Source: Archangium lipolyticum
GTDB lineage: Bacteria > Myxococcota > Myxococcia > Myxococcales > Myxococcaceae
Reading direction: 5' to 3'
DNA: 64,000 nt
NCBI RefSeq assembly: GCF_024623785.1
Contig: NZ_JANKBZ010000042.1
Span: forward strand, 1-64,000
Translations under genes and position numbers: made by a program
Notes under the pieces: model-generated
Database searches by the model: none
Seen by the model: the letters and a program-made list of their open reading frames with translations, nothing else
Told to the model about the DNA's origin: nothing
Shown here: piece by piece, positions 43,156-60,434 of the stretch
Layout: every line of letters begins with the position of its first letter
Position numbering within the stretch: position 1 is the stretch's first letter

Positions 43156-43620
43156 CTAGTTGTTGACGGTGACGTACAGAGCGTTGCCAGAATTCAGCGG
43201 GGCATTGTTGTGGACGTTGATGGGGGTGCTCTCGCAGGGCCCGTTCAGGACCACGGTCTGCCCCGGCGGGACCGTCACCACCCTGTCCCACGCGTACCTC
43301 GGGCACCAGACGTGGGCCTGCACATCGACTCCGCTGACGTTGTTGATGAAGATCGGGGTCTGCCAGAACCAGTTGCTGGCGAAGGTCTTCGTCTCCTGCG
43401 GGTAGACGAAGTCGGAGGTGGCGAGGGCGTGGACGTCCGGCGCCTCGTCCTGCCCCTGGGCCTCGTCCGGCACCTGGGGCTCGCCCTGCTGCTCCTGCGG
43501 AGCCGGCTGCTCGGTCGGCTCGGGCATGCCCTCGCCGCAGGCGCCCAGCAGGGAGGCGAAGGTCAGGAAGGTGAGTGCACGGAAGCAGGACCGCGGCGAG
43601 ACAATGTCATTCTTCTTCAT
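43156..43620 (-). CDS. Small lipoprotein of the ECF-CHAT regulon
   Basis: The 154-residue product has a lipoprotein signal peptide (lipobox LGAC near residue 28), a Pro/Glu/Gln-rich spacer of about 35 residues, and a beta-rich C-terminal domain (about 70-154) with two cysteines (WCPRYAWD and GPCEST) that may form a disulphide. AGGAACG precedes the ATG at 43620. Promoter A lies 80 bp upstream, so it belongs to the regulon of the ECF sigma at 48959. Surface display is likely; function unknown. Confidence 0.75.
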   Translation of the reverse strand: MKKNDIVSPRSCFRALTFLTFASLLGACGEGMPEPTEQPAPQEQQGEPQVPDEAQGQDEAPDVHALATSDFVYPQETKTFASNWFWQTPIFINNVSGVDVQAHVWCPRYAWDRVVTVPPGQTVVLNGPCESTPINVHNNAPLNSGNALYVTVNN

Positions 43621-43699
43621 GAGTCGTTCCTGGGTTGGTGTTGTTGTGATTGCGAGCGCCGAGGACCGCTGTGCGACCTCATCCGGCAATCACATGAAG

Positions 43700-43726
43700 A
43701 AGACGTGGGGCTTCAGGATTGTTACC
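43700..43726 (-). promoter_or_regulatory. ECF promoter A (small lipoprotein)
   Basis: On the minus strand, GGTAACAA (43726-43719), 13 nt, CGTCTT (43705-43700). It shares sequence and exact spacing with promoters B-E. It lies between the CHAT-STAND stop and the lipoprotein start. Confidence 0.8.
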
Positions 43727-43765
43727 CACTTTTGTTTTCCGGGAGTGGCTTCCCGCGCCTCGCGC

Positions 43766-46700
43766 CTACTTCACCTGTTCCAGTCTGCTGTAGCTGGCGG
43801 TCAGGTCCCGCTTCAGCGTGGCATTCGTCGGGTCCGCTTCGGACAGCTCCCGGTTCAGCGCGAGCGACTTCTCGTAATGCCCGCGCGCCTCTTCGAGCCG
43901 GCCCTGCGCCCGAGCCACCTCTCCCAGTCTGTTGTAGTTGATGACCAGGCCCCGCTTCAGCGTGGCATTCGTCGGGTCCGCTTCGGACAGCTCCCGGCTC
44001 AGCTCGAGGTCCTTCGCGTAGTGCCTGCGCGCATCCTCGAGGTGGCCCTGCTCGTGAGCCACCTTCCCCAACCTGCCGTAGTTGATGGCCAGGCCCCGTT
44101 TCAGTCTGGCATTCGTCGGATCCGCTTCGGACAGCTCCCGGCTCAGCGCGAGCGCCTTGCCGTACTGCTCGCGCGCCTCCGCGAGCTGGTCCTGGGCCTG
44201 TGCCACCTTTCCCAGCTTGCTGTAGCTGACGCTCAGGCCCCACTTCAGCGTGGCATTCGTCGGTTCCGCTTCGGACAGCTCCCGGCTCAGCGCGAGCGCC
44301 TTCTCGTAATGCTCGCGCGCCTCCGTGAGCTGATTCCGCGCCTGGGCCACTTCTCCCAGCTTGTCGTGGTTGACGGCCAGGGACCGCTTCAACGTGGCAT
44401 TCGCCGGTTCCGCTTCGGACAGCTCCCGGCTCAGCGCGAGCGCCTTCTCGTAATGCCCGCGTGCCTCCGCGAGCTGGTCCTGCGCCTGCGCTACCTTTCC
44501 CAGCCTGTTGTAGCCGATGGTCAGGCCCTGCTTCAGCGTGGCGCTCGTCGGTTCCGCTTCGGACAGCTCCTGGCTCAGCGCGAGCGCCTTCTCGTAATGC
44601 CCGCGCGCCTCCGCGAGCTGGCCCTGGGTTTGAGCGACATCCCCCAGATTCGAGTGGATGACGGCGAGCTCCTGTTTGTAGATGGGCTCATCTGGATCGG
44701 ACGCGAGCAGACGCTCGATGATCGCGAGTGCCCGGCCGTATTCCTCGCTCGCGCTCACCGTGTTCTCGTGGCTCATGGCCACATCACCTCGTTGCAGGTG
44801 ATTGCGGATGCTCTCGAGCTGGATGTCGGGTTCGTCGGTCGCTTCCAGGCTCTTCAAGAGCCCCTCCACTCCCTGCAACAATTCCTTGCGCACGGCCGCC
44901 GTGCCAGCGATGGGCCCCAGCTTCTTGCTCGTGACGAAGTGGATCTGCCTGGCCAGGCTGACCGCCTCTTCCAGGCGGTGCACCGCCATGGCCCGCTGGC
45001 GCGAGGCATAGAGGGCCAGCCCCGCGAACACCACCATCCCCACCGCCAGCGCCGCGCCCACGCACCACTGCCGTCTCACCCTCCGCCGCTCCCGCGCCTC
45101 GCTGGCTTCCAGGAACTCCCTCACCGAGGCCGTCAGCTGTCCCAGGTGCTCGCTCCGGATGCTGCGCGCGTACCCCAGCCGCGCCCCCGTCGCCAGGTAC
45201 GACTCGCCCCGGTCCGCATCCTTCCGGTGCCCCTGCCAGGCCTCGGCCATGGCTTGCAGCTCGCGCCACTGGAGCAGCCGTTTCCGGTTCTCCTGGAGCC
45301 ACTTTCGCAACCGCTCCCACCGGCGGATGAGTGCCTCGTGCGCAACCTCCACCCAGGCCCGGCCGCCGCCCTCCGTCTCGCTGCCCCGCGTCACCAGACG
45401 CTCGGCCACCACCTTCTCCAACACCCGATCGAGGGCGGCCCGCGCTTCCTTCTCCTCGGGCCACACCTCCTCCAGCCACGCCCTCCGCCGGCTGTCGGGT
45501 CTCGTCTCGTCTCCCAGCGACACCAGCTCCGCCAGCAGCCGCCTCACCTCCTGGCGCTCCTCCTCCCTCAGCGCCTCGTAGAGCCGCTCCGCCGTCTGGG
45601 TCAGGCTCCCCGCCACGCCATCCATCTCCTCGTAGGCCCGGTGCGTCAGCCTCCTGCCTTCCCGCCTCCGCCACAGCAGGTCCAGCGCATGCTCCAGCAG
45701 CGGCAGCGCTCCCGGCTCCTGCCCCACGTCCCCGCACAGCCGCTCCACCAGCCCCGCCTCCAGCTCCAACCCCACCGCGTGTGCCGGCTTCTCTATCGCC
45801 TCGGTCAGCTCCTCCGGGCTCATCTGGGCCACGAACAGCCGGTGCTCCTCGGCGTACACCACGGTGTCCAGTCGCGTCTGCTCATCCAGCACCACCTCTC
45901 CGCAACGCTCGAAGTGGTCCACCCGCAGCGTCACCACCACCACGCACCCCAACTCCGGCTCCCTGGCCAGCGCCCACACCGCCCTCATCAACGCCTGGCG
46001 CTCCTCGCTTCCCAGTTGTGTGAACACCTCCTCCAGCTGGTCCACCACCAGCAACAGCTTGCGCTCCGGACGCGCCTGCCTCAGCCGCCGCACCTCCTCC
46101 ACGACCTCCAGCAGGTTGGCGCTCTCGCCCGTCGGCGGCGTCTCGTGGTCCCACAGCCGGTGCAGCCGGTGTTGCAGCTCCAGCAGTGCGACGGAGCGTC
46201 CCTCCACCGCCGCCGGCCTGGTGCGCACCAGCTCGCCGGGCCTCACCACCACGGAGTCCCACTCCTCCCGTGGCAGTTGCGGCACCAGCCCGGCCATCAC
46301 CACCGAGGACTTACCGGCCCCCGAGGCCCCAGCCACCACCTGGAAGCGTGGCCGCTGGCCTCGAGCCGCTTGAGTCACCCGCCCCAGCAGCTTCGCCTCC
46401 AGCCGGCCCCGCCCGAAGAAGAAGCGCCTGTCCTTCGGCCCGAAGGCCAGCAGGCCGCGGTAGGGCCGCAGCACCACCGGCCTCAAGTCCGCCTCTCCCT
46501 CCCGGCGCGCGTACAGCTGCAGTGAGGCCCAGTCGAAGCCCTTCGTCTCCACCCTCAGCCGGCGCCGTACCGCCCCCAGCGCCTCCTCCAACGAGCTGGA
46601 GTCCACCAGCAGCTTCTCGTACAGCGTCTCGGCCAGCAGCACCGAGCCCTCCATCGACAACGGCAGCCGCGAGGCCACCACCATGTCGATGCCGGCCCTG

Positions 46701-47656
46701 TGCAGCTCCTGCGCCACGCTGCCCAGATAGCTGGCCAGCCTGCCGCCATCTCCGCCATGGCAGGCGCACAGCACCACCATGCGCAGCGTGTCCGCGTAGG
46801 GCGTCAGCACCGCCCCCAGCGCTACTCCGTCCACCAGCTCCCGGGTACCGCCCCTGGCCTCGGGCGCGTTCCACGCCAGCCCATGGTGGCCCGGGCCCGA
46901 CGTCTCCAGGGGTGCTCCGTGGCAGAGCACGTGCAGCACGGACACCGGCTCCTGCGCTTCCCGGGCCTCCCTCAACTTCTTGTCCAGGCTCTCCAGCGAC
47001 ACCCTCGGGAGCACGTCTCTCCGCGAGTCGAAGGCGAAGCCTCCCTCCCGGCTGGCCTTCTCCAGCGCCCGCAGGTGCTTGTCCTCCGGCACGCCTCCCC
47101 CCGCCTCCGACCAGGCCAGGAGCACCCGTCCCTCGTGCGCCGCCTCCCCGCGAGCCCCTTCCTCCCGCTCGCCGGGCCACTCGTAGCGCAGCGTGCACCC
47201 CGGCACGTCCGCCAGGTGTCGCCCGCTACCCTCGAGTGTCACCAGCTCCCAGGGCAGCGAGTACAGCTCCGCCGCCGACGAGCGCATCACCAGCCGCAGC
47301 TGCCTTCCCTTCCAGCGCCCCTGCTCCAGCCGCTCCTCTTGTCCCCCCCAGTCCAGCACGTCCAGGAAGCGCCTCATCCGCTCCCCCAACCGTCTGGCGA
47401 TCTCCCCGTCGGGTCTTCCCCCGGTCAGCGCCGCCAGGTCTCCCATCAGCTCCCCCCAAGGGAGGCTGGCGCGCTTCACTCCCCCCTCTCCTTCCCTCAC
47501 CAGGTAGTCCCGTTGCCCCTGGTGGAAGTCATGGGCATCCTCGGGACTGTCCGCGCGTGACAGCTCCAGCACCAGCTCGTAAGGGCCGGCCTCCGGCTCC
47601 CCGCGGTGGTCGGACTCGGGCCGTGGGCTCTCCGCCTCCAGGTGTGCTGCCCTCAT
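43766..47656 (-). CDS. CHAT protease - nSTAND ATPase - TPR protein
   Basis: The 1296-residue protein has a CHAT domain (about 120-390) with His246 (LHVLCHGAP) and Cys299 (LCACHGG) as the caspase-like dyad. The linker RPYRGLLAFGPKDRRFFFGR introduces an nSTAND1 NTPase with Walker A GASGAGKS (443-450) and Walker B LLLVVDQLEEV (about 545). A membrane-type helix lies near 905-925, and then six near-identical 48-residue TPR units. STAND proteins oligomerise on a trigger; a CHAT domain would then be switched on as protease, a design used in bacterial cell-suicide and defence. Promoter B is 32 bp upstream of the ATG. Trigger and substrate unknown. Confidence 0.9.
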   Translation of the reverse strand: MRAAHLEAESPRPESDHRGEPEAGPYELVLELSRADSPEDAHDFHQGQRDYLVREGEGGVKRASLPWGELMGDLAALTGGRPDGEIARRLGERMRRFLDVLDWGGQEERLEQGRWKGRQLRLVMRSSAAELYSLPWELVTLEGSGRHLADVPGCTLRYEWPGEREEGARGEAAHEGRVLLAWSEAGGGVPEDKHLRALEKASREGGFAFDSRRDVLPRVSLESLDKKLREAREAQEPVSVLHVLCHGAPLETSGPGHHGLAWNAPEARGGTRELVDGVALGAVLTPYADTLRMVVLCACHGGDGGRLASYLGSVAQELHRAGIDMVVASRLPLSMEGSVLLAETLYEKLLVDSSSLEEALGAVRRRLRVETKGFDWASLQLYARREGEADLRPVVLRPYRGLLAFGPKDRRFFFGRGRLEAKLLGRVTQAARGQRPRFQVVAGASGAGKSSVVMAGLVPQLPREEWDSVVVRPGELVRTRPAAVEGRSVALLELQHRLHRLWDHETPPTGESANLLEVVEEVRRLRQARPERKLLLVVDQLEEVFTQLGSEERQALMRAVWALAREPELGCVVVVTLRVDHFERCGEVVLDEQTRLDTVVYAEEHRLFVAQMSPEELTEAIEKPAHAVGLELEAGLVERLCGDVGQEPGALPLLEHALDLLWRRREGRRLTHRAYEEMDGVAGSLTQTAERLYEALREEERQEVRRLLAELVSLGDETRPDSRRRAWLEEVWPEEKEARAALDRVLEKVVAERLVTRGSETEGGGRAWVEVAHEALIRRWERLRKWLQENRKRLLQWRELQAMAEAWQGHRKDADRGESYLATGARLGYARSIRSEHLGQLTASVREFLEASEARERRRVRRQWCVGAALAVGMVVFAGLALYASRQRAMAVHRLEEAVSLARQIHFVTSKKLGPIAGTAAVRKELLQGVEGLLKSLEATDEPDIQLESIRNHLQRGDVAMSHENTVSASEEYGRALAIIERLLASDPDEPIYKQELAVIHSNLGDVAQTQGQLAEARGHYEKALALSQELSEAEPTSATLKQGLTIGYNRLGKVAQAQDQLAEARGHYEKALALSRELSEAEPANATLKRSLAVNHDKLGEVAQARNQLTEAREHYEKALALSRELSEAEPTNATLKWGLSVSYSKLGKVAQAQDQLAEAREQYGKALALSRELSEADPTNARLKRGLAINYGRLGKVAHEQGHLEDARRHYAKDLELSRELSEADPTNATLKRGLVINYNRLGEVARAQGRLEEARGHYEKSLALNRELSEADPTNATLKRDLTASYSRLEQVK
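43770..44650 (-). repeat. 144-bp coding minisatellite in the TPR region
   Basis: Six phased 144-bp units can be aligned, for instance on the block after CGGxTCCGCT at 43829, 43973, 44117, 44261, 44405 and 44549, each exactly 144 bp apart. Each encodes a 48-residue TPR-like unit (core LAEARGHYEKALALSRELSE). The strong DNA-level identity points to recent expansion or gene conversion, so copy number probably varies between strains. Confidence 0.9.
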
Positions 47657-47687
47657 GTGCAATCCCCCTCGCTTGCGTTCCTCGAAG

Positions 47688-47714
47688 AGGACGCACGGCG
47701 GCGGGATTGTTACC
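47688..47714 (-). promoter_or_regulatory. ECF promoter B (CHAT-STAND gene)
   Basis: On the minus strand, GGTAACAA (47714-47707), 13 nt, CGTCCT (47693-47688), 32 bp before the start codon. One base differs from the consensus -10. Confidence 0.8.
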
Positions 47715-47770
47715 TGCACCCATTTCCCGTGGGTTTTCCGCCAGGCGGGCGGCCCACGTTGTTTCCAGCA

Positions 47771-47822
47771 CCGCTCCTGGCCCTCTCCCCCCCCCACGCT
47801 CATGTGAGAGGGCCAGGAGCGG
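47771..47822 (-). terminator. Long hairpin downstream of the lectin gene
   Basis: Seventeen-base perfect arms (47771-47787 and 47806-47822) enclose an 18-nt loop, starting 6 bp after the lectin stop codon on the minus strand. This is the strongest hairpin in the window. No T-run follows, so it may terminate factor-dependently or stabilise the mRNA, and it insulates the lectin unit from promoter B. Confidence 0.6.
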
Positions 47823-47827
47823 TTTAC

Positions 47828-48697
47828 TCAGTAATTGAAGGCCACCGTGCCTCCGCAGCTGGTGTAGCCGTAGCAGCCGGCCTGCAGGGTGTACGTGCCC
47901 GACACCGGGACGACGATGGAGATGTTGGACAGCAGGCCGCACGGCCCGCCGGCATTATCGTTGCTGGCGATCTCCTTCCCGGTCGGGTTGTTGAGGCGCA
48001 GGTAGGTGTCGCCAGAGCCGGAAGAGCCCGGCACGCCGCAGGTGCCGGCCGTGAAGACCTGCCCGGCAAACAGGTGGAGCGAGTGGTTGAAAGTGTTGAC
48101 CTTGGCGTTATCGGTGTTCGAGGCGCTGTAGGAGAAGCTGCCCCGGTTGACCGTGGGCACCGGATTCCGCTCGCAGATGAAGGAGAACGCATGGTTGCAC
48201 GACCAGTCGTTCCAGGTATCGGAGTAGTAGTTGTAGGCTGGATCGCCGAGGCGATCGGCAGCGCAGTCCTCCGCGTTCTGCCAGTTGTCGGGCTGGCCAG
48301 GGTCCCAGTTCGTGTACGAGGACGAGCCGTTGGCCCAGACCCAAGCCCCCTCGATGCCCTTGTCGTTGAAGCCAATCCACCAGTTGTACGACCCCCGGGC
48401 GGCCTCCTGGGTCTGGAGGAAGGACTCCTCGGAGGCATCGTTGATGGTCACCAGTGAGTAGCCACCGGCGAGCTGGCAGTAGGTCTGCGCTTCGTCCCAG
48501 GTCTTGGGCGTGCTGACGAACAGGTAGTCGTGCCCGCCGTAGGAGATGGCGCTCTCGGTGACACCCACGTCCTCCATCGCGGCCCGCCTGGCCTCGGACT
48601 CCGCTTCCACCGGCTCCACACCGCAGCCGATGACCGGCACCGCCACGAGAACGAGCATGCCCAGCTTGGAGAACATCCCAGACAGATTCCGCTTCAT
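47828..48697 (-). CDS. C-type-lectin-like lipoprotein of the ECF-CHAT regulon
   Basis: The 289-residue product has a lipoprotein signal (lipobox VIGC near residue 25). A C-type lectin domain (about 52-176) opens with GHDYLFVSTPKTWDEAQTYC, continues with the calcium/sugar motif QPDN (galactose-type QPD) and WND, and closes with FSFICE. A second beta domain (about 180-289) resembles pre-peptidase C-terminal domains. It probably binds sugar outside the cell and may act as sensor or adhesin. Divergent from the sigma gene; promoter C lies 70 bp upstream. C-type lectin folds are uncommon in bacteria and sugar binding is inferred from motif only. Confidence 0.88.
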   Translation of the reverse strand: MKRNLSGMFSKLGMLVLVAVPVIGCGVEPVEAESEARRAAMEDVGVTESAISYGGHDYLFVSTPKTWDEAQTYCQLAGGYSLVTINDASEESFLQTQEAARGSYNWWIGFNDKGIEGAWVWANGSSSYTNWDPGQPDNWQNAEDCAADRLGDPAYNYYSDTWNDWSCNHAFSFICERNPVPTVNRGSFSYSASNTDNAKVNTFNHSLHLFAGQVFTAGTCGVPGSSGSGDTYLRLNNPTGKEIASNDNAGGPCGLLSNISIVVPVSGTYTLQAGCYGYTSCGGTVAFNY

Positions 48698-48766
48698 GTT
48701 ACCCCCCAGATGTCAGTGATGGGTTCGCCGGGGCCGTTCGTTTGGAATCACCGCCCCCGCGAGGAA

Positions 48767-48793
48767 AAGACGCGAGGGGGCTGGTTTGTTACC
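48767..48793 (-). promoter_or_regulatory. ECF promoter C (lectin lipoprotein gene)
   Basis: On the minus strand, GGTAACAA (48793-48786), 13 nt, CGTCTT (48772-48767). It lies back to back with promoter D, with 25 bp between the two -35 boxes. Confidence 0.85.
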
Positions 48794-48818
48794 CGTGGCG
48801 TCCACCGTCGGCGGCGCG

Positions 48819-48845
48819 GGTAACAAATCCCTCCCTTCGCGTCTT
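48819..48845 (+). promoter_or_regulatory. ECF promoter D (sigma factor gene itself)
   Basis: GGTAACAA (48819-48826), 13 nt, CGTCTT (48840-48845). The site precedes the ECF sigma gene, so the circuit is probably autoregulated, as usual for ECF sigma factors. Confidence 0.88.
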
Positions 48846-48853
48846 GCCGGAGC

Positions 48854-48876
48854 GGGGAGGACACGCGGTCCTCCCC
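48854..48876 (+). promoter_or_regulatory. Leader hairpin of the sigma mRNA
   Basis: GGGGAGGAC, a 5-nt loop ACGCG, and the exact complement GTCCTCCCC begin about where promoter D transcripts should start. A very stable 5' hairpin can protect the mRNA or limit translation. Confidence 0.5.
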
Positions 48877-48958
48877 CTGGCTCCTTCGAACGAGACGATT
48901 GATGCGGCTCCTGGCTCCTCCACGGTCATGTGATCCCGAGGCCCACGAAGCACCCTCG

Positions 48959-49666
48959 ATGAACGCGGCGCGCACTCTCGGTGAGGCCCGGCAACCGGAC
49001 GTCCCCCCGTCGTGGGGCCAGACCGAGCCGGACGGACCCTCCCCAACAGGTGGGGCCCGTGTCATAAAGCTGCCTGTTCGTCCCCGTGAGCAGGACCCGG
49101 GGCGACGAAGGGGGCCACCACAGCCAATGGACAAGGCGAAGAGCGAGCAACGAGCCGGGGAGTTCGCCACGCGGTATCGAGCCTGGCTGCTTGCCCAGGC
49201 CCACAACCTCTGCCGCAATGCCACCGACGCGGAGGACCTCGTGCAGGACGCCCTGCTGCGATTCATCCAGACCTTCGGCCAGTTGGAGGCGCTCCCCAAC
49301 GAGCGCAGCTGCGAGGCCTGGCTGGTCACCACCCTGACCCATCTCTTCTACGACCAGTGCCGCAGGCGGCGGGTGCAGGCCCAGGGCGCGAAGGATCCCC
49401 ACCTGAGCAACGAGGTGGTGGTGGCGCATGAGCCCGACTCCCGGCCCGTCTATGACTCGCTCACGGACGCGCAGTTCTCCGAGGCCCTCCAGACGTTGAG
49501 CCCGAAGATTCGCGCCACGTTCGAGTTGCACGCGGCCGGGAAGAAATACCAGGACATCGCTCGTTCCCTCGGCATTCCGGTGGGCACGGTCTCCAAGCGG
49601 CTGCACGATGCCCGCGCCAGATTGCGCGAGTTCCTCCTGCGGCACATCCAATCCGGAGTGAACTGA
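48959..49666 (+). CDS. ECF RNA polymerase sigma factor controlling the CHAT regulon
   Basis: The 235-residue form has sigma region 2 (about 70-140, with NATDAEDLVQDALLRFIQ) and region 4 (about 175-230, with GKKYQDIARSLGIPVGTVSKR). Region 3 is missing, as in all ECF factors. The N-terminal 56 residues are Pro/Arg-rich with less biased third codon positions, so the true start may be ATG 49127; ATG 48902 is a longer alternative and none has a strong ribosome site. TGATG couples it to the anti-sigma/CHAT gene. Promoter D upstream makes it self-regulated, and promoters A-C and E are its likely targets. Confidence 0.9.
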   Translation: MNAARTLGEARQPDVPPSWGQTEPDGPSPTGGARVIKLPVRPREQDPGRRRGPPQPMDKAKSEQRAGEFATRYRAWLLAQAHNLCRNATDAEDLVQDALLRFIQTFGQLEALPNERSCEAWLVTTLTHLFYDQCRRRRVQAQGAKDPHLSNEVVVAHEPDSRPVYDSLTDAQFSEALQTLSPKIRATFELHAAGKKYQDIARSLGIPVGTVSKRLHDARARLREFLLRHIQSGVN

Positions 49667-52605
49667 TGGACAGCCTCTGTGACAACGTCGAGCTGTTCGT
49701 GGACGGGGAGCTGGCTCCCGAACACGCCGAGGCGTTCCGCCAGCACCTTCCCGACTGCGCCCGGTGCCAGCGCGAGGTGACGGAGCTGCTGCAGCTCAAG
49801 CTCCTGGCACACCGCCACGCCGAGAACGCAGCCGAGAGCGCGCCGGCTCCATTATCGCGCGTCATGCCCGTGGCCTTCTGGCGGCGGCCCGTCGTGCTGG
49901 TGCCAGCCGCTCTCGCCGCGGCCCTGCTGGTGCTGGTGGCGGTGCGCTTCCTGCTGCCCTCCAGGCCCCGTCAGGACGTGTGGCTGGCGCAGCGCACCGA
50001 GCGCCTGCTGGAGGCGCGTCTCGGCCACCCCGGCGCCGACGTCTACCGTCCCCCGGCTCCGAAGATGATGGGCGGAGCGGGCAACCCGGAGGAGCTGCCG
50101 CTCGAGGCCATGGCCTGGCTCGAGCGGGAGGATCCCCACGGCCTCGCGGCGGCCTACCTGGTTCGCGACGACAAGGGGCTGGCGGATCAGGCGCTCCGGA
50201 AGCTGGAGAAGCTGGCGCACTCGCCGGAGCTGGACAACGACCGCGCGGTGGCGCTGCTGCTCAAGGGCCAGCCCAAGGAGGCCCTCCGTCTGGTGGACGA
50301 CGTGCTGGAGCAGCACCCTCGTCATCCGCAGGCGCTGTGGAACCGGGGCCTGGCGCTGCGCGAGCTGGGGTTGCCGTTGCTGGCGGCAAAGGCCTTCACC
50401 GAGGTCGCCGCCTTGAAGGAGCCCGGCTGGTCCGATGAGGCGGCACGGAAGGCCGAGGCCCTCCAGCGCGCCGTGTTCGAGCGCCGCACCCGGTGGATGG
50501 CCACCCGGGAGGCGGGCCGGGCCCTTCGCGAGGCCACTCCGGGCGTGACGCCCCAGGGCTTCGGCGAGGTGCCCATCTCGCGGCTCTTCTTCTATGACGC
50601 CGTCCGCGCGGCCCCGGACCGGGAGCGGGTGCTGGCGCTGCTGCCCGTGGCCCGGGAGCTGGATGCGCGGGCGGGCGGTGACGTGCTCGAGCGCTACGTG
50701 CACCGGATCGCGGAGGCGGACTTCTCGCGCCGCGCCCCGTTCGCCCGCCAGTATTCGGAGTTGATCGACAAGCGCCTCTCTTCGGAGGAGCGGGAGCGCT
50801 TCCTCGCGGCGCTCCTCCAGTCGCGGGAGGATGACATCCTCCTGGGCGCGCTCATCCAGATGGGCGCCACCGCCCGCCACCTGGAGCTCTACGAGGCGAA
50901 GGCCGCCGCCACGGGGGACGTCTGGTTCCAGCTCCTCGCGGCGCAGGAGCGTGCAAGGGTCGAGAGCGCCGCCGGGCGCTGGACCCAGGCCACCCGGACC
51001 CTCCTCGCCGCGCGCGGCCTCTGCACGGCGCGCGGCGTCGAGTACCGCTGCCTCTGCATCGATCGCGAGCTGTCCAACCTCTACATCCAGCGCCGCATGG
51101 TCGACGCCGCGCGCACCCACACCGAGCGGAGCTGGAAGTCGGCTCGCGAGAACAACGAGTGGGAGCTGGAGAATGATCTGCTGTGGAACCTCTCGCGGAT
51201 CGCCCGGGTGGTGAACGACGCGGCGCTGACGCGCGCCTACCTGGGGGAGTACCTCGAGCGGGGCCGGGAGGATCCGGACATGCGGCGCCGTGCCCACCAG
51301 GATCTCGCGAGCATCGCGTTCCGGGAGCTCCGGGTGGACGAGGCCCGGCGGGAGATCGATTCCGCGTTGGCCACGGGTCTTCCGCTCCTGTACGGCGGCG
51401 CCTTCTCCCTGGCGGACATCTCGCGGCTGAAGAGCGAGCCCGGGGACGAGGCCCACCTGAACCGGGCGCTGGATGCGGCCAGGCCCACGTTGGGCGCGGG
51501 CGAGCGCGCGGTCGCCACGCACATGCAGGGACGCTTCTACATCGAGCGTGACGCGGCGCGGGGGCGTGCCCTGCTCCAGCGCGCCATCGAGGAGGCATCG
51601 GCTCCGGGCCTCGAGGATGACCCGGGGGCGCGGCGGGCGCGCGCCTACAGCTACACCTCCCTTTTGCATGACGCGGGCCGGCGCGGCGCCTTCCCGGAAG
51701 CGCTGGAGCTGTTCGCGCGCGAGCGGGGCATGGAGCTGCCAGGGAAGTGTCTGCTGGCGGTCACCGCGGACTCGGAGCGGACGCTGCTCCTGGCGCGGGG
51801 CGCCTCCGGGGAGCTGCTCGGTCACTTCGACGAGTCCCGGCGCCAGCCGCTGCCCCAGCGGCTCGACGGGTTCGTGCCGGAGAAGCTCCTGGCGGCCCTG
51901 CGCACGTGCCCGCGGGTGGAGGTGCTGGCCCGGCCTCCGCTCCATGGCAGGGCGGGGCTGCTCCCGCCGGAGATGGCCTGGAGCTACCTGACGCGCACCT
52001 CTGCTCCCCGCGCCTCGCGTGTGGGGCCCGCGGTCCACCTCGTCGTCTTCGACGTGGACGCGGAGCTGCCACCCGAGAGCTCTCTCGAGCGGCTCAATGC
52101 CTGGACCCCCGTCTTCGGCCCCGACGAGCAGCGCGTCACGCTCTCGGGGACCGAGGCGACTCCTTCCCGGGTCCTCTCCGCCATGAGGGACGCCACGGAG
52201 ATCGACCTGGTGGCCCACGGCATCGTCGATGGCTACTCCAACACCTCCTACCTATTGCTGGCGCCCGAGCAGGACGGCCCGGAGCTGAGCGTGCCGCGGG
52301 TGCGCTCCGCCTCCCTGCGGGGTGCTCCCTTCGTGGTGCTCGTGGCCTGCCACGCCGCCCACACGGCCTACTCGTTCGACACGCCTTTCAGCCTCCCGGC
52401 CTCCTTCATCGAGGCGGGGGCTCGCGGCGTGCTCGCGGCGACAGTGGAGATTCCGGACCTGGAGGCGGGAGCCTTCTTCAACGCCGTCCGCGAGCGCATC
52501 CGTTCGGGGACGGCGCCGGCCCTCGCGCTGCGTGACGAGCGCGTGCAGTGGCTGCGCGCCGGCCGGGGAACGGCGTGGCTCGACAGCGTGCTCCTCTTCG
52601 AGTGA
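49666..52605 (+). CDS. Anti-sigma zinc finger - membrane - helical repeat - CHAT protease fusion
   Basis: The 979-residue protein begins with an anti-sigma zinc-binding motif (H27-x3-C31-x2-C34), has one membrane helix at about 75-96, a helical TPR-like region to about 700, and a C-terminal CHAT domain with the dyad His851 (LVAHGIVDG) and Cys895 (LVACHAAHT). The cytoplasmic N-terminus should hold the sigma factor. If topology is N-in, everything after the helix is periplasmic, so the protease would act outside the inner membrane or on the protein's own stalk. Coupled to the sigma gene by a 1-nt overlap. I know of CHAT or TPR proteins near ECF genes, but not this single-chain arrangement as an established system. 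Confidence 0.9.
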   Translation: MDSLCDNVELFVDGELAPEHAEAFRQHLPDCARCQREVTELLQLKLLAHRHAENAAESAPAPLSRVMPVAFWRRPVVLVPAALAAALLVLVAVRFLLPSRPRQDVWLAQRTERLLEARLGHPGADVYRPPAPKMMGGAGNPEELPLEAMAWLEREDPHGLAAAYLVRDDKGLADQALRKLEKLAHSPELDNDRAVALLLKGQPKEALRLVDDVLEQHPRHPQALWNRGLALRELGLPLLAAKAFTEVAALKEPGWSDEAARKAEALQRAVFERRTRWMATREAGRALREATPGVTPQGFGEVPISRLFFYDAVRAAPDRERVLALLPVARELDARAGGDVLERYVHRIAEADFSRRAPFARQYSELIDKRLSSEERERFLAALLQSREDDILLGALIQMGATARHLELYEAKAAATGDVWFQLLAAQERARVESAAGRWTQATRTLLAARGLCTARGVEYRCLCIDRELSNLYIQRRMVDAARTHTERSWKSARENNEWELENDLLWNLSRIARVVNDAALTRAYLGEYLERGREDPDMRRRAHQDLASIAFRELRVDEARREIDSALATGLPLLYGGAFSLADISRLKSEPGDEAHLNRALDAARPTLGAGERAVATHMQGRFYIERDAARGRALLQRAIEEASAPGLEDDPGARRARAYSYTSLLHDAGRRGAFPEALELFARERGMELPGKCLLAVTADSERTLLLARGASGELLGHFDESRRQPLPQRLDGFVPEKLLAALRTCPRVEVLARPPLHGRAGLLPPEMAWSYLTRTSAPRASRVGPAVHLVVFDVDAELPPESSLERLNAWTPVFGPDEQRVTLSGTEATPSRVLSAMRDATEIDLVAHGIVDGYSNTSYLLLAPEQDGPELSVPRVRSASLRGAPFVVLVACHAAHTAYSFDTPFSLPASFIEAGARGVLAATVEIPDLEAGAFFNAVRERIRSGTAPALALRDERVQWLRAGRGTAWLDSVLLFE

Positions 52606-52624
52606 GAGGAAAAAAAGAGGGTGA

Positions 52625-52651
52625 GGTAACAAACCGGGCCGGGGCCGTTCT
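52625..52651 (+). promoter_or_regulatory. ECF promoter E (tandem-domain / caspase-like operon)
   Basis: GGTAACAA (52625-52632), 13 nt, CGTTCT (52646-52651), 47 bp before the start at 52699. The -10 box departs from CGTCTT at two positions, so it may be weaker. It gives the operon a boost independent of read-through from promoter D. Confidence 0.72.
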
Positions 52652-52698
52652 TGTGCACGGGTGGAGCGAATCCACCCTTCCCAGCACAGGAGCCAGTC

Positions 52699-53466
52699 AT
52701 GAGCCATCAGGAGCCGGTCCTCTACAACCTCAAGTTCTCCGTGGATTACCCCTACTGGCGCGGGGTCGAGGACCGCTCGCGGCGCGTCTTCCTCATGCCG
52801 TTGCCCAACCCCGCCGAGTTCGTGGCCTTCGGCGTGCTCGGCCCGTCCAACACGGTGCTCTTCGTGGCCAGGGGCCGGGTGGGCGAGCGCCTCGGGGACT
52901 TCCTGGAGCGGATGAAGCGGTCCGGGGCCGGCGTGGAGCTCTACGAGCGGGTGCCGCTGCCGTGGCCCCTCGTGAAGCGGTACACCTCCGACGACCCCTT
53001 CGATGGTGAGGAGACGGATCCGCCCAAGGGCTCGACCGACGCGGGGAGGATCTCCTACGCGGGGGGCTCGGGTCACTTGCTGTGGGAGGAGGTGCTGTCC
53101 GTGCCCATCTCCGACGAGCCCATCTGGCCCGCGCAGTACATCTCCTTGCGGAAGGTCTTCATCATGCCGCTGCCCGGCCATGAGGAATTCCTGGCCCTGG
53201 GCGTGTGCACCAGCGCCCCGGAACCGGGCGTGAACCTGTTCGTCTTCGTGGCCAGGGGCAATGTGGGCGAGCACCTCTATGGCTTCGTCGCCCGGTTGAG
53301 GGATGCCGGTATCTACGTGGGGCTCTGCGACTGGCCGCCGCTGGACTACCTGCAGCAGTACGTCAGGACGGCGCACCCCCAGGCCTTCGATGCGCGCTCG
53401 CTTCCGCCCGCCACCGGCGAGAGCACCCTCCGCACGAGCACACAGGAGGTCACTGCGCAGCACTGA
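52699..53466 (+). CDS. Tandem-domain protein of the ECF-CHAT locus, unknown family
   Basis: The 255-residue cytoplasmic protein is two copies of a roughly 100-residue module. The halves share RRVFLMPLP / RKVFIMPLP (residues 28 and 151), then EFVAFGV / EFLALGV, LFVARGRVGERL / FVARGNVGEHL and a closing aromatic helix (LVKRYTSDDPF / LQQYVRTAHPQAF). AGGAG lies 6 nt before the ATG. It sits between promoter E and the caspase-like protease gene (49 bp apart), so it may be the protease's partner, inhibitor or substrate. No family recognised. Confidence 0.7.
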   Translation: MSHQEPVLYNLKFSVDYPYWRGVEDRSRRVFLMPLPNPAEFVAFGVLGPSNTVLFVARGRVGERLGDFLERMKRSGAGVELYERVPLPWPLVKRYTSDDPFDGEETDPPKGSTDAGRISYAGGSGHLLWEEVLSVPISDEPIWPAQYISLRKVFIMPLPGHEEFLALGVCTSAPEPGVNLFVFVARGNVGEHLYGFVARLRDAGIYVGLCDWPPLDYLQQYVRTAHPQAFDARSLPPATGESTLRTSTQEVTAQH

Positions 53467-53515
53467 CCCGTGAGCCGCGACGGGATGGATTCACCGTGGA
53501 ACGGAGGGGGAACCC

Positions 53516-55018
53516 ATGACACTCGAGCTGCTGCTCGCTCATGACGATGAACGCCCGGCCGCGCCTGGCCAGGGATTGAAGGCGGAGACGCTCCAGCGCG
53601 CTCCACGGCCCCAGGCTGTCGAGCTGCCGGAAGACCTGTGGGACGCGACGAAGGATCCCAACGACCTGCCCGCCCAGCGCTGGGGACTGGTGGTCCCGGA
53701 GGGAAGCGATGGTGACAAGCTCCTGGCGCTCGTCGAGCCGCTGCGGCGGCTGCGCCAGGCGTCCCAGGGAGGTGCGCCGGTGGAGATCTACCGCGTCCCG
53801 TCCGTGATGGACGGCGCGTTCGCCGCGGAATGGAAGAGGGAGATCTTCCGCGACGAGAAGATGTCCGAGAAGAACCGCCCGCGCTACCTGCTGCTCCTGG
53901 GGGATCTGCACCAGGTGCCGCTGGAGCTGCAGCAGGCGCTGACCACCGATGCCTTCGTGGGGCGGCTGGCCTTCTCGTCGGACGCGGGCTACGAGGCCTA
54001 TGTCGAGAAGGTGCTGCGGTGGGAGGACGCGGCCGCGCGAGAGGCGAGCGCGCGCATGCTCTTCTACACCTCGCGGGACCGCACCAGCGCGACGGAGATG
54101 GGGTACGAGATGCTGATCGCCCCGAGCGTCGAGGCCTGCCGGGAGCGCCAGCAGTTGGACGACTTCCCCGCGGCGGACATCCTCGAGCTGGGAGGGGAGG
54201 GGGCCGCGTCCATCGAGGAGCTCCTGTCCCACGCGGAGCGGCCCGGGCCGGGTGTGCTGTTCACGTTGAGCCACGGCAGGGGCCGGCCCTCGGGCGGCTG
54301 GGACAAGCCCGAGAAGCGGCTCGCGCACCAGGGAGAGCTGAAGCTGCCGGACGGGCGGTTCCTGTCGGCGGAGGCGCTCGCGTCTCGGCCCTTCCTGCCG
54401 GGTGGTGTCTGGTTCAGCTTCGCGTGCTTCAGCGCGGGGACGCCCTCGCGGAGCAGCTACACGCACTGGCTGCGCCAGCTCCCCCCGACCGACCCGAATG
54501 CGCGCAGGGGCTTCGAAGCGCTGCCCCAGCAGGGGGAGCAGCCCTTCATCGCCGCGCTGCCCAAGGCCGCGCTGGCCAACCCCAACGGGCCGTTGGCGGT
54601 GATGGGGCACGTGGACCTGGCCTGGTCCTACAGCTTCAACGACAAGGGCCGCCGTACGCCCTCGCGCTTCATCGAACTGCTGAGGGCGCTCGCCCAGGGG
54701 AGCCGCGCCGGTGTCGCCCTGAGCACCCTGCTGCAGTTCCTCAACGAGGCGAGCAGCGAGCTGGCGATGCTCTACAACCAGGAGCAGATGGATCTCATGG
54801 ATGGGCGTCCATCCTCCGTGGATCCGGCGGACAAGGCCCGGCTGTGGATGCAGCGCCAGGATCTCGCCAACTACATCCTGCTGGGGGACCCCGCCATCCG
54901 GCTGCCACTGGCCTCCCGCCGGGTGGAGGTGGAGCCCGCCGTGCCGACGTCGGCCTGGGACGAGCAGGAAGCGCTGAAGCGGCTGCTGGGTCCCCAATTC
55001 AGGAGCACCCCCAGGTGA
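53516..55018 (+). CDS. Caspase-like (clan CD, CHAT/C25-type) protease
   Basis: The 500-residue protein lacks a signal peptide. It has His253 in LFTLSHGRG and Cys304 in WFSFACFSAG, each after a hydrophobic strand and 51 residues apart, the arrangement of clan CD proteases. The closing motif NYILLGDPAIRLP is typical of C25/CHAT-like enzymes. This is the second stand-alone CHAT-like enzyme besides the STAND fusion, so it is a candidate effector. GGAGGGGG precedes the ATG. It lies 3' in the operon of promoter E and converges on the PLD-like gene. Confidence 0.85.
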   Translation: MTLELLLAHDDERPAAPGQGLKAETLQRAPRPQAVELPEDLWDATKDPNDLPAQRWGLVVPEGSDGDKLLALVEPLRRLRQASQGGAPVEIYRVPSVMDGAFAAEWKREIFRDEKMSEKNRPRYLLLLGDLHQVPLELQQALTTDAFVGRLAFSSDAGYEAYVEKVLRWEDAAAREASARMLFYTSRDRTSATEMGYEMLIAPSVEACRERQQLDDFPAADILELGGEGAASIEELLSHAERPGPGVLFTLSHGRGRPSGGWDKPEKRLAHQGELKLPDGRFLSAEALASRPFLPGGVWFSFACFSAGTPSRSSYTHWLRQLPPTDPNARRGFEALPQQGEQPFIAALPKAALANPNGPLAVMGHVDLAWSYSFNDKGRRTPSRFIELLRALAQGSRAGVALSTLLQFLNEASSELAMLYNQEQMDLMDGRPSSVDPADKARLWMQRQDLANYILLGDPAIRLPLASRRVEVEPAVPTSAWDEQEALKRLLGPQFRSTPR

Positions 55019-55097
55019 AGAGCCCCTCCCTGTTCCGGTGATGAACCCCGCCGCTGGCGCGCCCCCTTGGAGCGAGCCAGCGGCTTTCTTCCGTGGC

Positions 55098-56348
55098 TCA
55101 GGGCGAGCCGCTGATGTTCGGCGCCGTGTAGGTGGCCTTCGGGTCCACCTCGGCCGCGTAGGGGCTCGACCAGGTGTCCGAGAAGAAGCGCTCGAGCTGG
55201 CTCGCGAACGGCGCGCCCTCCACGATGACGCCCACGTTGCGGCTCTGCGTGAAGTAGTCACGCTCCCAGTTGCTCGTGCCGAGCCACGCATTCTCGCCAT
55301 CCACCACCATGTACTTGGCGTGCACCACGCGCGCGAACGGGATGAACCCGCCCGACCACTGGGGAATGGTGACGAGCTTCACCGTCAGCCCCGGCGGCGC
55401 GTGCAGCGCCTGGAGTCCCTCGATGGTGCCCTTGCGCTTGCCCCAGTCGGCCACCAGCAGCTCCACCTTCACCCCGCGCGCCGAGGCCCGCTTCAGCGCC
55501 TCCTCCAACTCGGGGAAGGTGCTCCCGTCACGCCCGCGCGCCCGGTATGTGAGCAGCTGCACCCGCACCGAGCGCTTCGCCCCGTCGATGAGCTTCACCA
55601 TCCTGGGCAGGTCCCACGTGCCCGGGTCCGGCAGCCAGCCCTGGGGGCTCAGCGCGGGCGTCACGCGCACCGGGCCTCCCGAGACGTTCGCGGGGAACGG
55701 ACCGCCCACCGCCGTCACCGTGGCCGGCGCGGTGCCTCCCGCCGCGAGCCCCCAATCCAGCTCGAAGACATCGGCCAGCGAGCGCACCACCTCGGGGACG
55801 CGGATGCGCAGCCCGAGCTCCTGGATGTGCTCCAGCGAGCGCCAGTCCATGTTCTGGCTGCCGAGGTACGCCTCGCGCCCGTCCACCACGAAGTACTTCG
55901 CGTGCTGTACGCCGCCCATGGACTTCGCGGTGTCCAGCCTGCGCATCTCGATGCCCGGCCGCTTCGCCAGCCGCTCCAGCGTCTCCGGGTACGTCTTGTA
56001 GAACTTCTCCTCCGCGAGCAGCCGCACCTTCACGCCCCGGTCCGCCGCCGCCTCGATGGCCTGGATGACGGTCTCCAGCCGGCTGTTGGGCTCGTTGCTC
56101 ACGTAGAACTGCGAGATGTCGAGCGTCCGCGTGGCGCCGTTCACCATCTCCGGCCACACGTCCCTGGCATCGGGGATGTCCGCGTGGTCCAGCGTCGTCT
56201 CCACGGGGACGCTCTCCACCAGCACCAGGTCAGGAGACCCGGCACGAGTGGACTCGGGAGCGGAGGCGCGCACGGCCGGAGCCGGCGCGGCGCACGCGAG
56301 GGACAGCAAGAGGGAAAGAAGGAAGACGCTCGACCGGGGCAGGGACAT
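55098..56348 (-). CDS. Phospholipase-D-like lipoprotein
   Basis: The 416-residue product has a lipoprotein signal (lipobox LSLAC, Cys19) and two HKD motifs, H149-x-K151-x4-D156 and H343-x-K345-x4-D350, both followed by Asn (SQN, TSN) as in active PLD enzymes. The two halves make one active site cleaving phosphodiester bonds of lipids or nucleic acid outside the cytoplasm. An upstream GTG at 56357 is an alternative start. Converges with the caspase-like gene; no shared promoter motif is visible. Confidence 0.92.
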   Translation of the reverse strand: MSLPRSSVFLLSLLLSLACAAPAPAVRASAPESTRAGSPDLVLVESVPVETTLDHADIPDARDVWPEMVNGATRTLDISQFYVSNEPNSRLETVIQAIEAAADRGVKVRLLAEEKFYKTYPETLERLAKRPGIEMRRLDTAKSMGGVQHAKYFVVDGREAYLGSQNMDWRSLEHIQELGLRIRVPEVVRSLADVFELDWGLAAGGTAPATVTAVGGPFPANVSGGPVRVTPALSPQGWLPDPGTWDLPRMVKLIDGAKRSVRVQLLTYRARGRDGSTFPELEEALKRASARGVKVELLVADWGKRKGTIEGLQALHAPPGLTVKLVTIPQWSGGFIPFARVVHAKYMVVDGENAWLGTSNWERDYFTQSRNVGVIVEGAPFASQLERFFSDTWSSPYAAEVDPKATYTAPNISGSP

Positions 56349-56374
56349 GGGAGGCACCGTATACGAAAACCAGA

Positions 56375-56402
56375 GGCCCCCCGCGATTGCTCGCGGAGGG
56401 CC
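56375..56402 (-). terminator. Terminator of the TonB-receptor operon
   Basis: GGCCCCCCGCG and CGCGGAGGGCC (one mismatch) flank a 6-nt loop, 29 bp past the receptor stop on the minus strand, followed on that strand by TCTGGTTTT. It has the form of an intrinsic terminator. Confidence 0.7.
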
Positions 56403-56431
56403 CCGGATTCACAACGTGTCTGACTTTGACG

Positions 56432-59233: not shown

Positions 59234-59262
59234 GAATGAAGTCTCGGGGGAAGAGGAGGGGC

Positions 59263-60213
59263 TCACTGCGGGCTGCTCGCCAGGAACATCACGCCGGAGA
59301 GGGTCTTGACCGTCGTCATGTCGATCGCGTCCGCGGCGCACGGCGGGTCGTAGCAGAGGCTGGTGTAGTTGGTGCCCGCGGGCGGGACGAGCTCATACAC
59401 GCGCACCACCGGAGACCACTTCTCCCCGCCGGGCCGGGCCTGGAACACGAACCTGGAGTTGTACACCGGGGCCTTGTCGGCGGCGGCGGCCTTCAGCCAC
59501 ACGGCGTCCATCGTCTTGAAGTTGCCGGCCTCGTCCACCGTCACCGCGCCACTGTCGAAGTAGGCGAGCTGCAGGCCGCGGTACCACCCGGACTTCAGCT
59601 CGGCCGGGGGCGGGTAGGGGGCATACGTCGTGTCGATGATGGCGCGGAAGGCGAAGGACTCGCCCTCGGCCTCCTTGCCACCGAAGTCACCCTCCTTGAG
59701 GGAGGTGAGGTCCTTGATGGCGTTGCAGGGCTGCTGCGGCATCTCCGACCAGGACTTCACCTTCACCAGCGGCACCACCAGCGCGCTCGTGTTGGTGAAG
59801 GGCAGTCCGTCGAACACGGAGTACTGCGTGTCCTCGCGGTACGCGTCCGTGCGGACGTCGTACTCCTTGCCCGTCTTGCACCCTTCCGCGAAGTCATACG
59901 CGGTGATCTTCACCGCGCTGGCCGGCACCGCCGGGCGCTGCTGGGCGTCCTTGGAGAGGTTCTTGTCATCCTTGGCGATGAAGCCCAGGTAGAAGTAGGA
60001 GAACTCCGTTCCGCCGCTGTAGGCCTTCTGCACCGCGAAGGGGCACTTGTCCCGCTTGTTGGAGCCGCAGGTGGCGTGGGGCTGGAACTTCGAGTCGAGT
60101 CCGCTGGCGTCGATGGTGCCCCGATACGGATCACCCGGCTGAGCCGAGCCGCCACAGGACACGGCACCCAACGCCATCATCAGCGTCAGTGCCCATTTCT
60201 GCTTCGTTTGCAC
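59263..60213 (-). CDS. Receptor-associated lipoprotein
   Basis: The 316-residue product has a lipoprotein signal with lipobox VSC at about residue 20 and no recognised domain afterwards. Six or more cysteines suggest disulphides. GTG 60213 is favoured because AGAGG lies 7 nt upstream and the signal peptide begins at once; ATG 60261 would add a Pro-rich stretch. It precedes the TonB-dependent receptor in one operon, the position of a substrate-binding surface lipoprotein, and diverges from tonB. Confidence 0.72.
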   Translation of the reverse strand: MQTKQKWALTLMMALGAVSCGGSAQPGDPYRGTIDASGLDSKFQPHATCGSNKRDKCPFAVQKAYSGGTEFSYFYLGFIAKDDKNLSKDAQQRPAVPASAVKITAYDFAEGCKTGKEYDVRTDAYREDTQYSVFDGLPFTNTSALVVPLVKVKSWSEMPQQPCNAIKDLTSLKEGDFGGKEAEGESFAFRAIIDTTYAPYPPPAELKSGWYRGLQLAYFDSGAVTVDEAGNFKTMDAVWLKAAAADKAPVYNSRFVFQARPGGEKWSPVVRVYELVPPAGTNYTSLCYDPPCAADAIDMTTVKTLSGVMFLASSPQ

Positions 60214-60434
60214 GAGGAGCCTCTCTGGGGAGAGTGGGGGAGATGGTGGGGGCCTCGACATGGGCGTTCTGGAGTGAACGCGCGCCGCTGCCGGGACGGC
60301 CATGTATCAACACTTGAGGTTTTTTTCCAACCGGGCACCCATTTTCACTTGGATTTCACATCCTGACCGGGGGGGTAGGGGAGACAGGGCGCCGGAGTGT
60401 GGTATGAGAGGGGGACCCTCAGCCCCCATACCCC

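What the first reader, a model, noticed from the sequence alone, without database searches (positions are those of the whole stretch)
43700..52651. Five matching ECF promoters define a CHAT/STAND/lectin regulon
Five sites show GGTAACAA, exactly 13 nt, then CGTCTT (A, C, D), CGTCCT (B) or CGTTCT (E): 43700-43726, 47688-47714, 48767-48793, 48819-48845 and 52625-52651. Each lies 30-115 bp ahead of a different gene and in its direction, and one precedes the locus' own ECF sigma gene. I found the pattern nowhere else in the window. Identical spacing and an -35 with the AAC core are the established hallmarks of an ECF promoter. The inference is one stress-induced regulon of protease, STAND, lectin and lipoprotein genes.
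Basis: partly seen in the sequence, partly recalled or inferred. Interest (0 to 1): 0.95.

Follow-up and report, generated by a model that had tools for sequence, protein, structure and literature searches.

The report
DdvS-type sigma regulon of caspase-like proteases
Five matching switches in this myxobacterial DNA look like start signals read by one regulatory protein, and they seem to put a cluster of caspase-like protease and sensor genes, probably a self-defence programme, under a single control.

Summary
GGTAACAA-N13-CGTYYT occurs five times in the window (0 in 100 shuffles) and six times in the 12.6-Mb genome, with no one-mismatch site and none for the reversed pattern. Each window site lies 31-79 bp ahead of a gene in its direction, so each apparent transcription unit of a 12-kb island has one. 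The sixth site precedes a distant secreted-protein gene; in a relative that gene adjoins the island and keeps the site. Sites recur at the same two positions in most homologous loci.

The sigma factor's partner is a full-length homologue of DdvA, the solved zinc-finger/TPR-CHAT transmembrane anti-sigma factor of Myxococcus xanthus, and the ddvS gene has the same layout ahead of it (CGTAACAT-N13-CGTTTT). A review passage says DdvS controls a CBASS/CRISPR antiphage island. Here a separate paralogue appears to control a CHAT-STAND protein, a C25 caspase-fold protein, an unknown protein, a lectin and lipoproteins. 'One ECF regulon' is well supported at sequence level. 'Stress-induced' is untested; an invader-triggered defence island is my preferred reading, by kinship only. 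New variant of a known kind.

The parts
43700..43726 (-). site A, promoter of lipoprotein gene
   Evidence: exact match; 79 bp ahead of ATG 43620; a site with a like spacer lies in the G047 region (L087:14847) ahead of an unrelated 224-aa frame
43156..43620 (-). small lipoprotein gene (lipobox LLGAC read by eye), no Pfam family at its cut-off
   Evidence: no homologue in the loci
47688..47714 (-). site B, promoter of CHAT-STAND gene
   Evidence: exact match; exact sites precede two CHAT-STAND genes in G047 and two in G072
43766..47656 (-). CHAT + nSTAND1 NTPase + hydrophobic segment + TPR protein, start ATG 47656
   Evidence: Pfam nSTAND1 6.8e-101, CHAT 3.6e-14, TPR; PADLOC SAVED_CHAT 8.4e-37 over residues 26-398 only
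48767..48793 (-). site C, promoter of lectin gene; its -35 is back to back with that of site D, 25 bp between
   Evidence: the same 25-bp gap in G047 and G072 (coordinates, sequences)
47828..48697 (-). C-type lectin lipoprotein
   Evidence: Pfam Lectin_C 1e-18; lipobox VIGC read by eye; only L103 has a hit, to the C-terminal part
48819..48845 (+). site D, promoter of the ECF sigma gene
   Evidence: D-position hit in 15 of 17 window-type loci by weight matrix, exact in 7 of 17
48902..49666 (+). ECF sigma factor (DdvS-like), start at ATG 48902 likely
   Evidence: Pfam Sigma70_r2 and r4_2, TIGR02937; an ARVIKLPVR-like block ahead of region 2 is shared by six relatives
49666..52605 (+). zinc-finger anti-sigma domain + hydrophobic helix + TPR + CHAT, DdvA-like anti-sigma factor
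   Evidence: Pfam zf-HC2, CHAT; full-length match to PDB 8rot/8rw5; Zn ligands and CHAT His/Cys invariant in 24 of 24 rows counted
52625..52651 (+). site E, internal promoter after the anti-sigma gene
   Evidence: E-position hit in 15 of 17 window-type loci by weight matrix, exact in 5 of 17
52699..53466 (+). 255-aa protein, two similar halves by eye, no known family
   Evidence: no Pfam, NCBIfam or PADLOC hit; homologue in 16 of 17 window-type loci, the window counted
53516..55018 (+). Peptidase C25-like (gingipain-type caspase fold) protein
   Evidence: Pfam Peptidase_C25 1.1e-8 over a 46-residue stretch; homologue in 16 of 17 window-type loci; H253 and C304 invariant in those 16 rows

Best explanation
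The five sites, plus one on another contig, are -35/-10 elements of promoters read by RNA polymerase carrying the ECF sigma factor encoded at 48902-49666. The sigma factor is held at the membrane by the DdvA-like zinc-finger/TPR-CHAT anti-sigma factor encoded just downstream. An unknown signal, perhaps through the TPR-CHAT domain and proteolysis of the anti-sigma factor, frees sigma. Sigma then raises its own operon (D, E) and switches on the rest of the island (A, B, C) and one distant secreted-protein gene. The output is a set of caspase-fold proteins (CHAT-STAND, C25) plus surface lectin and lipoproteins, in my view most likely a defence or conflict response. Shown by sequence: sites, layout, conservation, homology. 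Inferred: recognition by this sigma, release mechanism, signal, defence function. The confidence given is for the promoter and regulon part; for defence as the function I would give about 0.55.
For: Rarity and clean gap. Position and spacing kept at D and E in most homologous loci. Co-occurrence: exact sites in 9 of 15 genomes whose best homologue of the anti-sigma protein scores 999 bits or more, against 5 of 130 others (Fisher p=1.3e-7; 8.4e-7 without the own genome; 5.3e-6 without G047 too). The unlinked target keeps the site in G047 and, right after the C25 gene, in G072. DdvA kinship by sequence and fold. Same layout ahead of the ECF gene in the DdvA locus and six relatives of it. Promoter letters largely follow clades of the anti-sigma tree.
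Against: No transcription start, binding or expression data. The weight matrix was trained partly on sites it then scored; exact D or E sites exist in 8 of 17 loci. L093 and L096 lack a D hit, L092 and L097 an E hit; some hits are weak (L103 D 15.7 bits without the CGT core, L090 E 16.0, L093 E 16.4; threshold 13.5). The lectin and lipoprotein targets have no full homologue in the loci, so their membership rests on the own genome. Eleven of 39 exact sites in the order lie outside window-type loci, three of them (L041, L050, L051) with no likely target. No CRISPR or CBASS gene was recognised in the island. Genome relatedness was not corrected for.
Confidence: 0.8

Rival explanations
1. The sites are binding sites of a DNA-binding regulator, not promoters; the back-to-back C/D pair would be one inverted repeat.
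For: C and D -35 letters form an inverted repeat with a constant 25-bp gap in three genomes.
Against: A, B, E and the sixth site are single and oriented, with the CGT half toward the gene; the layout recurs ahead of ECF genes of several paralogues (8 of 19 loci, four of them read by eye, no control) and ahead of ddvS, whose promoter is reported to need DdvS (PMC4374960, passages).
Confidence: 0.06
2. The sites are ECF promoters but are read mainly or also by another paralogous ECF factor, so the regulon is shared between several DdvS-like pairs.
For: The own genome has a second DdvA-like pair (C48, 42-43% identity), and paralogues use near-identical -35 letters.
Against: No such site was recognised ahead of the C48 ECF gene; five of the six own-genome sites are at the window pair; the four same-genus genomes G043-G046, whose homologues score 906 bits or less, have no exact site.
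Confidence: 0.14
3. It is an ECF regulon, but for envelope stress, surface life or predation rather than defence.
For: Targets of sites A, C and the sixth site are secreted or lipoproteins; in G077, G080 and G082 exact sites precede kelch-repeat proteins with lipoprotein-like starts, a subtilase and small secreted proteins.
Against: A second CHAT protein and a C25 protein are the most constant partners (16 of 17 window-type loci each); the closest characterised pair is reported to control antiphage genes (PMC12288465, passage).
Confidence: 0.35

Closest known systems
DdvS/DdvA sigma/anti-sigma pair of Myxococcus xanthus (PDB 8rlz, 8rot, 8rw5)
   Same: ECF gene followed by a zinc-finger + TPR-CHAT anti-sigma gene; full-length sequence and fold match (39-40% identity); GTAAC-N15-CGT layout ahead of the ECF gene
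   Different: Distinct clade; G076 carries both types; promoter letters differ (GGTAACAA/CGTYYT against [AC]GTAAY(A/T)T/CGTWTY in seven DdvA-type loci); recognised targets are CHAT-STAND, C25, lectin and lipoproteins, not CBASS/CRISPR
Type III-E Craspase: Csx29 (TPR-CHAT) cleaving Csx30 to free CASP-sigma
   Same: TPR-CHAT architecture tied to an ECF sigma factor
   Different: There the protease and the sigma inhibitor are separate proteins and the protease is RNA-guided (PMC10028731, abstract start and passages); here CHAT is fused to the anti-sigma domain
ECF54 group (CHAT, subtilase or carboxypeptidase in gene context)
   Same: CHAT protein beside an ECF gene
   Different: [quoted passage not shown] here an anti-sigma domain is present
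TRADD-N/EACC2 caspase conflict systems with ECF sigma genes
   Same: caspase-fold proteins near an ECF gene in multicellular bacteria (PMC8195603, passages)
   Different: Resemblance of theme only; I did not test for TRADD-N or EACC2 domains specifically, and no such name came up in the Pfam scan

Membership tests
DdvS/DdvA-type ECF/anti-sigma pair | N-terminal zinc-binding anti-sigma domain | tested here: met
   zf-HC2 2.1e-5; C5, H27, C31, C34 invariant in 24 of 24 rows counted; N-terminus matches 8rlz 'Antisigma factor DdvA', E 6e-10
DdvS/DdvA-type ECF/anti-sigma pair | TPR-CHAT C-terminal part with the DdvA fold | tested here: met
   8rot_B E 1.1e-182 over residues 3-979; VIA Z 35.4, rmsd 3.7, 701 aligned with 8rw5, first row that is not DdvA Z 17.4; the CHAT part of my model has low pLDDT, so CHAT rests on sequence
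DdvS/DdvA-type ECF/anti-sigma pair | single transmembrane helix between the two parts | tested here: inconclusive
   hydrophobic stretch about 75-97 seen in the alignment and helix 79-94 in the model; no topology program run
DdvS/DdvA-type ECF/anti-sigma pair | ECF gene directly upstream with a site of the same layout ahead of it | tested here: met
   stop/start overlap at 49664-49668; site D; same layout in the DdvA locus. Sequence level only
DdvS/DdvA-type ECF/anti-sigma pair | controls a CBASS/CRISPR defence island (a feature of the M. xanthus regulon) | tested here: not met
   no such gene recognised among the island's products
DdvS/DdvA-type ECF/anti-sigma pair | sigma bound and released by the anti-sigma factor | not testable with these tools
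   needs binding and expression assays
ECF promoter | AAC-core -35, CGT-core -10 at fixed spacing, ahead of the sigma gene itself, conserved | tested here: met
   with the limits told in the Against line
ECF promoter | start site just after the -10, sigma-dependent | not testable with these tools
   needs 5'-end mapping
ECF54 | no anti-sigma factor | tested here: not met
   anti-sigma domain present; the ECF54 models themselves were not available
Craspase / CASP-sigma | separate sigma inhibitor and an RNA-guided partner | tested here: not met
   anti-sigma domain and CHAT are one chain; no Cas family named for the island proteins

The most novel reading that the evidence does not exclude
A second branch of DdvS/DdvA control in myxobacteria runs an immune or programmed-death island built from three caspase-fold proteins: the CHAT anti-sigma factor as trigger, the CHAT-STAND protein as NTP-driven sensor and the C25 protein as executor, with lectin and lipoproteins at the surface. 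The TPR-CHAT anti-sigma family would then be a general switch that many paralogues use, each with its own promoter letters, to turn on different defence arsenals.
Probability: 0.4. Interest if true: 0.8.

Novelty: new variant of a known kind. Interest (0 to 1): 0.66.

Why it matters
If true, the DdvS/DdvA switch is a family of parallel circuits, several per genome, with readable promoter letters. The letters let one list the targets of each circuit by sequence and point to possible defence genes that no homology library knows, such as the protein at 52699 and the secreted protein at the sixth site. It also offers a bacterial case where an ECF sigma factor is tied to several caspase-fold proteins, testable in laboratory myxobacteria.

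Tried and rejected
Chance: rejected. Over 145 genomes of the order there are 39 exact matches in 14 genomes, and 6 matches of the reversed control.

A larger regulon in the own genome from looser patterns: the 44 sites with 2 mismatches are at control level and I added none; other spacings likewise. GTAAC-N15-CGTYYTC in 15 genomes is also close to background (41 matches, control 28 by my addition of the columns).

The + strand ORFs at 55038-60366, which I first took as downstream genes: rejected as antisense of - strand genes by codon-position GC and Pfam.

Fold of the 52699 protein alone: pLDDT 40.6, not used. A solved-structure search with the C25 protein gave nothing below E 0.2. An alignment of 52699 homologues failed on a coordinate error and I did not repeat it with that tool; they had been aligned in a script.

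Homologue counts are lower bounds: five candidates were scored per genome and the list is cut.

Literature: ten searches. In the rows listed (searches list 20 of 80, 92, 69, 34 and 31) I saw no paper on this motif or regulon. Passages only were seen of PMC8195603, PMC10028731, PMC8999054, PMC7406223, PMC8103513, PMC4374960 and PMC12288465. The two primary DdvS/DdvA papers (Bernal-Bernal 2018, 2024; named in the reference list of PMC12288465) are not held. What I recall of the 2024 abstract (DdvA dimers, a CHAT active site called incomplete, release by intramembrane proteolysis) comes from no call; it coloured my idea of the release step, which is marked as inferred.

Rows dropped: three of 27 rows (L119-L121) were left out of the invariance count because the frame read lacks the zinc-finger part; they were also left out, where no row fell to the length filter (42 rows). 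Promoter labels were read by me from earlier scans. In one search, G121, whose homologue is split over contigs, was counted as having none. The site search used a pattern I fitted to the DdvA loci, without a control.

Full report
Observation. GGTAACAA-N13-CGTYYT is present exactly five times in the window, at the stated coordinates; the largest number in 100 shuffles is 0. The whole genome (12,594,933 bases, 75 contigs) has one more, on contig C3, and the reversed pattern has none. Allowing two mismatches gives 50 matches against 48 in the control: 6 exact, 0 with one mismatch, 44 with two. The exact sites are a separate class, not the tip of a noise distribution.

Anatomy. Frames and start codons as I read them give five apparent transcription units, each with one site: A (lipoprotein, 79 bp), B (CHAT-STAND-TPR protein, 31 bp), C (C-type lectin lipoprotein, 69 bp), D (ECF sigma, then the anti-sigma gene, 56 bp) and E (an unknown 255-aa protein, then a C25 caspase-fold protein, 47 bp). 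The island spans about 43156-55018. The flanks are other families: DsbA, PAP2 and LysE on the left, a PLD-like protein and a TonB-type outer-membrane receptor on the right. Sites C and D stand back to back with 25 bp between their -35 elements, and G047 and G072 keep that gap (coordinates, sequences).

Conservation. Of 145 genomes of the order, 14 have exact sites, 39 in all; the reversed control has 6. By place, 26 of the 39 lie in or beside loci of the window type (own 5, G047 6, G072 6, G074 3, G121 2, and one each in G076, G104, G114, G120), 2 ahead of the sixth-site gene, and 11 in five other genomes. I fetched 19 loci around homologues of the anti-sigma gene (a twentieth stretch is a continuation). 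With the window, 17 are of the window type by clade. A weight matrix finds a D-position site in 15 of 17 (not L093, L096) and an E-position site in 15 of 17 (not L092, L097), against 2 hits in the reversed sequences of 20 loci. That matrix was trained partly on these sites, and some hits are weak. The count with the window's own pattern alone is 7 of 17 at D, 5 of 17 at E, 8 of 17 at either. In G068 (L103) the two strong sites, E and one ahead of a CHAT gene, both have 14-nt spacing, as does a weak D-position hit that lacks the CGT core. Genomes whose best homologue scores 999 bits or more (53% identity or more): 9 of 15 have exact sites, against 5 of 130 others (Fisher p=1.3e-7; 8.4e-7 without the own genome; 5.3e-6 without G047 too). 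Relatedness was not corrected for.

Gene content across loci. In one search (tblastn at 1e-8) the 52699-type protein and the C25 protein are each found in 16 of 17 window-type loci, the window counted; L095 lacks both, although a 171-aa frame after its E site looks similar. A second CHAT protein is found in 16 of 17: in 8 the match runs through the STAND part, in 8 it covers the CHAT part only. The lectin and the lipoprotein are not found elsewhere, apart from a hit to the lectin's C-terminal part in L103. The core of the regulon is therefore the proteases, and the surface proteins vary.

Unlinked target. The sixth site precedes a secreted protein of 313 aa without a Pfam family. G047 keeps the site at a distant locus, while in G072 the related gene lies right after the C25 gene with an exact site 81 bp ahead. 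The promoter goes with the gene, not with the neighbourhood.

What the pair is. The protein at 49666-52605 has a zinc-finger anti-sigma domain, a hydrophobic helix, TPRs and a CHAT domain. The solved-structure search gave a full-length match to 8rot/8rw5 (E 1.1e-182) and a match to 8rlz 'Antisigma factor DdvA'. The fold searches name 8rot and 8rw5 as the transmembrane anti-sigma factor DdvA (Foldseek E 3.7e-43; VIA Z 35.4, rmsd 3.7, 701 aligned, first other row Z 17.4). C5, H27, C31, C34 and the CHAT letters H851 and C895 are invariant in 24 of 24 rows counted. The window protein is not DdvA itself: it falls in a 20-row clade (17 window-type loci plus L075, L078, L079) apart from the 7-row DdvA clade, both with 100/100 support, and G076 carries one of each.

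Link to the characterised promoter. In G117, whose gene is 100% identical to the 300 DdvA residues used, CGTAACAT-N13-CGTTTT lies 29 bp ahead of the ECF start, and six related loci have [AC]GTAAY(A/T)T-N13-CGTWTY there. Passages of PMC4374960 say that the ddvS promoter needs DdvS, that DdvS becomes active when DdvA is inactivated and that the signal is unknown. [quoted passage not shown] In the DdvA-type loci, sites found with a pattern that I fitted to them, without a control, precede a CBASS oligonucleotide cyclase (L138, PADLOC 1e-80; similar frames by eye in L139 and L141-L143), a SAVED-nuclease effector (L140, 5e-230) and a weakly Cmr1-like frame (L137, PADLOC 6e-4, no Pfam hit); one further hit in L143 has no assigned target. 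An exact window-type site also lies 73 bp ahead of a Cmr1-like gene in G095 (L038). These support a defence role by kinship, not for the window itself.

Paralogues. Of 19 other loci examined, 8 show the same layout ahead of the ECF gene with other letters: L075, L078, L079 and L086 by pattern, L080, L084, L104 and L105 by my reading of printed sequence, without a control. None was recognised for the own C48 paralogue, L074, L081-L083, L085, L115-L118 or L123.

Mechanism. The best-supported chain is: sigma held by the DdvA-like protein; signal; release; autoregulation through D and E; activation of A, B, C and the distant gene. I infer, but did not show, that caspase-like cleavage helps release sigma and that the output is a defence or death response. 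An envelope, social or predatory role remains possible, since several targets are secreted.

Verdict. 'Stress-induced' is untested and probably too general. The finding belongs with DdvS/DdvA-type circuits as a variant with a different arsenal. I saw no paper on it in the rows listed by ten searches, but the two primary DdvS/DdvA papers could not be read.

Noticed in passing
L106 (own genome C48:22473-25427): A second DdvA-like anti-sigma gene with an ECF gene, 42-43% identical; no GGTAAC-type site was recognised ahead of it.
   Followed up: partly
L038 (G095:C60:21346-21372): An exact window-type site lies 73 bp ahead of a Cmr1-like (type III-B CRISPR) gene.
   Followed up: partly
L035, L036, L037, L047, L048, L049, L056 (G077, G080, G082): Exact sites precede kelch-repeat proteins with lipoprotein-like starts, a subtilase and small secreted proteins, suggesting another arsenal under a like promoter in that genus.
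   Followed up: partly
L041 and L051 (G116): Two exact sites with identical spacers ahead of near-identical 70-aa frames, probably a repeated sequence rather than a promoter.
   Followed up: no
L087:9463-9689 (G047): Where the lectin gene is missing, two sites stand in tandem ahead of CHAT-STAND, as if the lectin promoter had been left behind.
   Followed up: no
L119, L120, L121: DdvA-like TPR-CHAT proteins whose frame, as read, lacks the zinc-finger part.
   Followed up: no
L089:10744-10770 (G072): A near-site (GGTAACAG-N13-CGTCTT) 83 bp ahead of a lipoprotein-like metalloprotease with FG-GAP repeats.
   Followed up: no
window:55098-56357 (-): PLD-like protein, also matching DISARM DrmC and cardiolipin synthase models below NCBIfam cut-offs, next to the island but without a site.
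   Followed up: no
L080 and L084 upstream of the ECF gene: By eye, divergent partner sites have 14-nt spacing (GGTAA(C/G)AA-N14-CGTTG) facing away from a 13-nt site.
   Followed up: no
6-30 bp upstream of the -35 of the 39 exact sites: Slightly A/T-rich: mean AT 0.39 against 0.35 in the island's intergenic DNA and 0.31 in the window, perhaps UP-like or CarD-type contacts; not tested further.
   Followed up: partly
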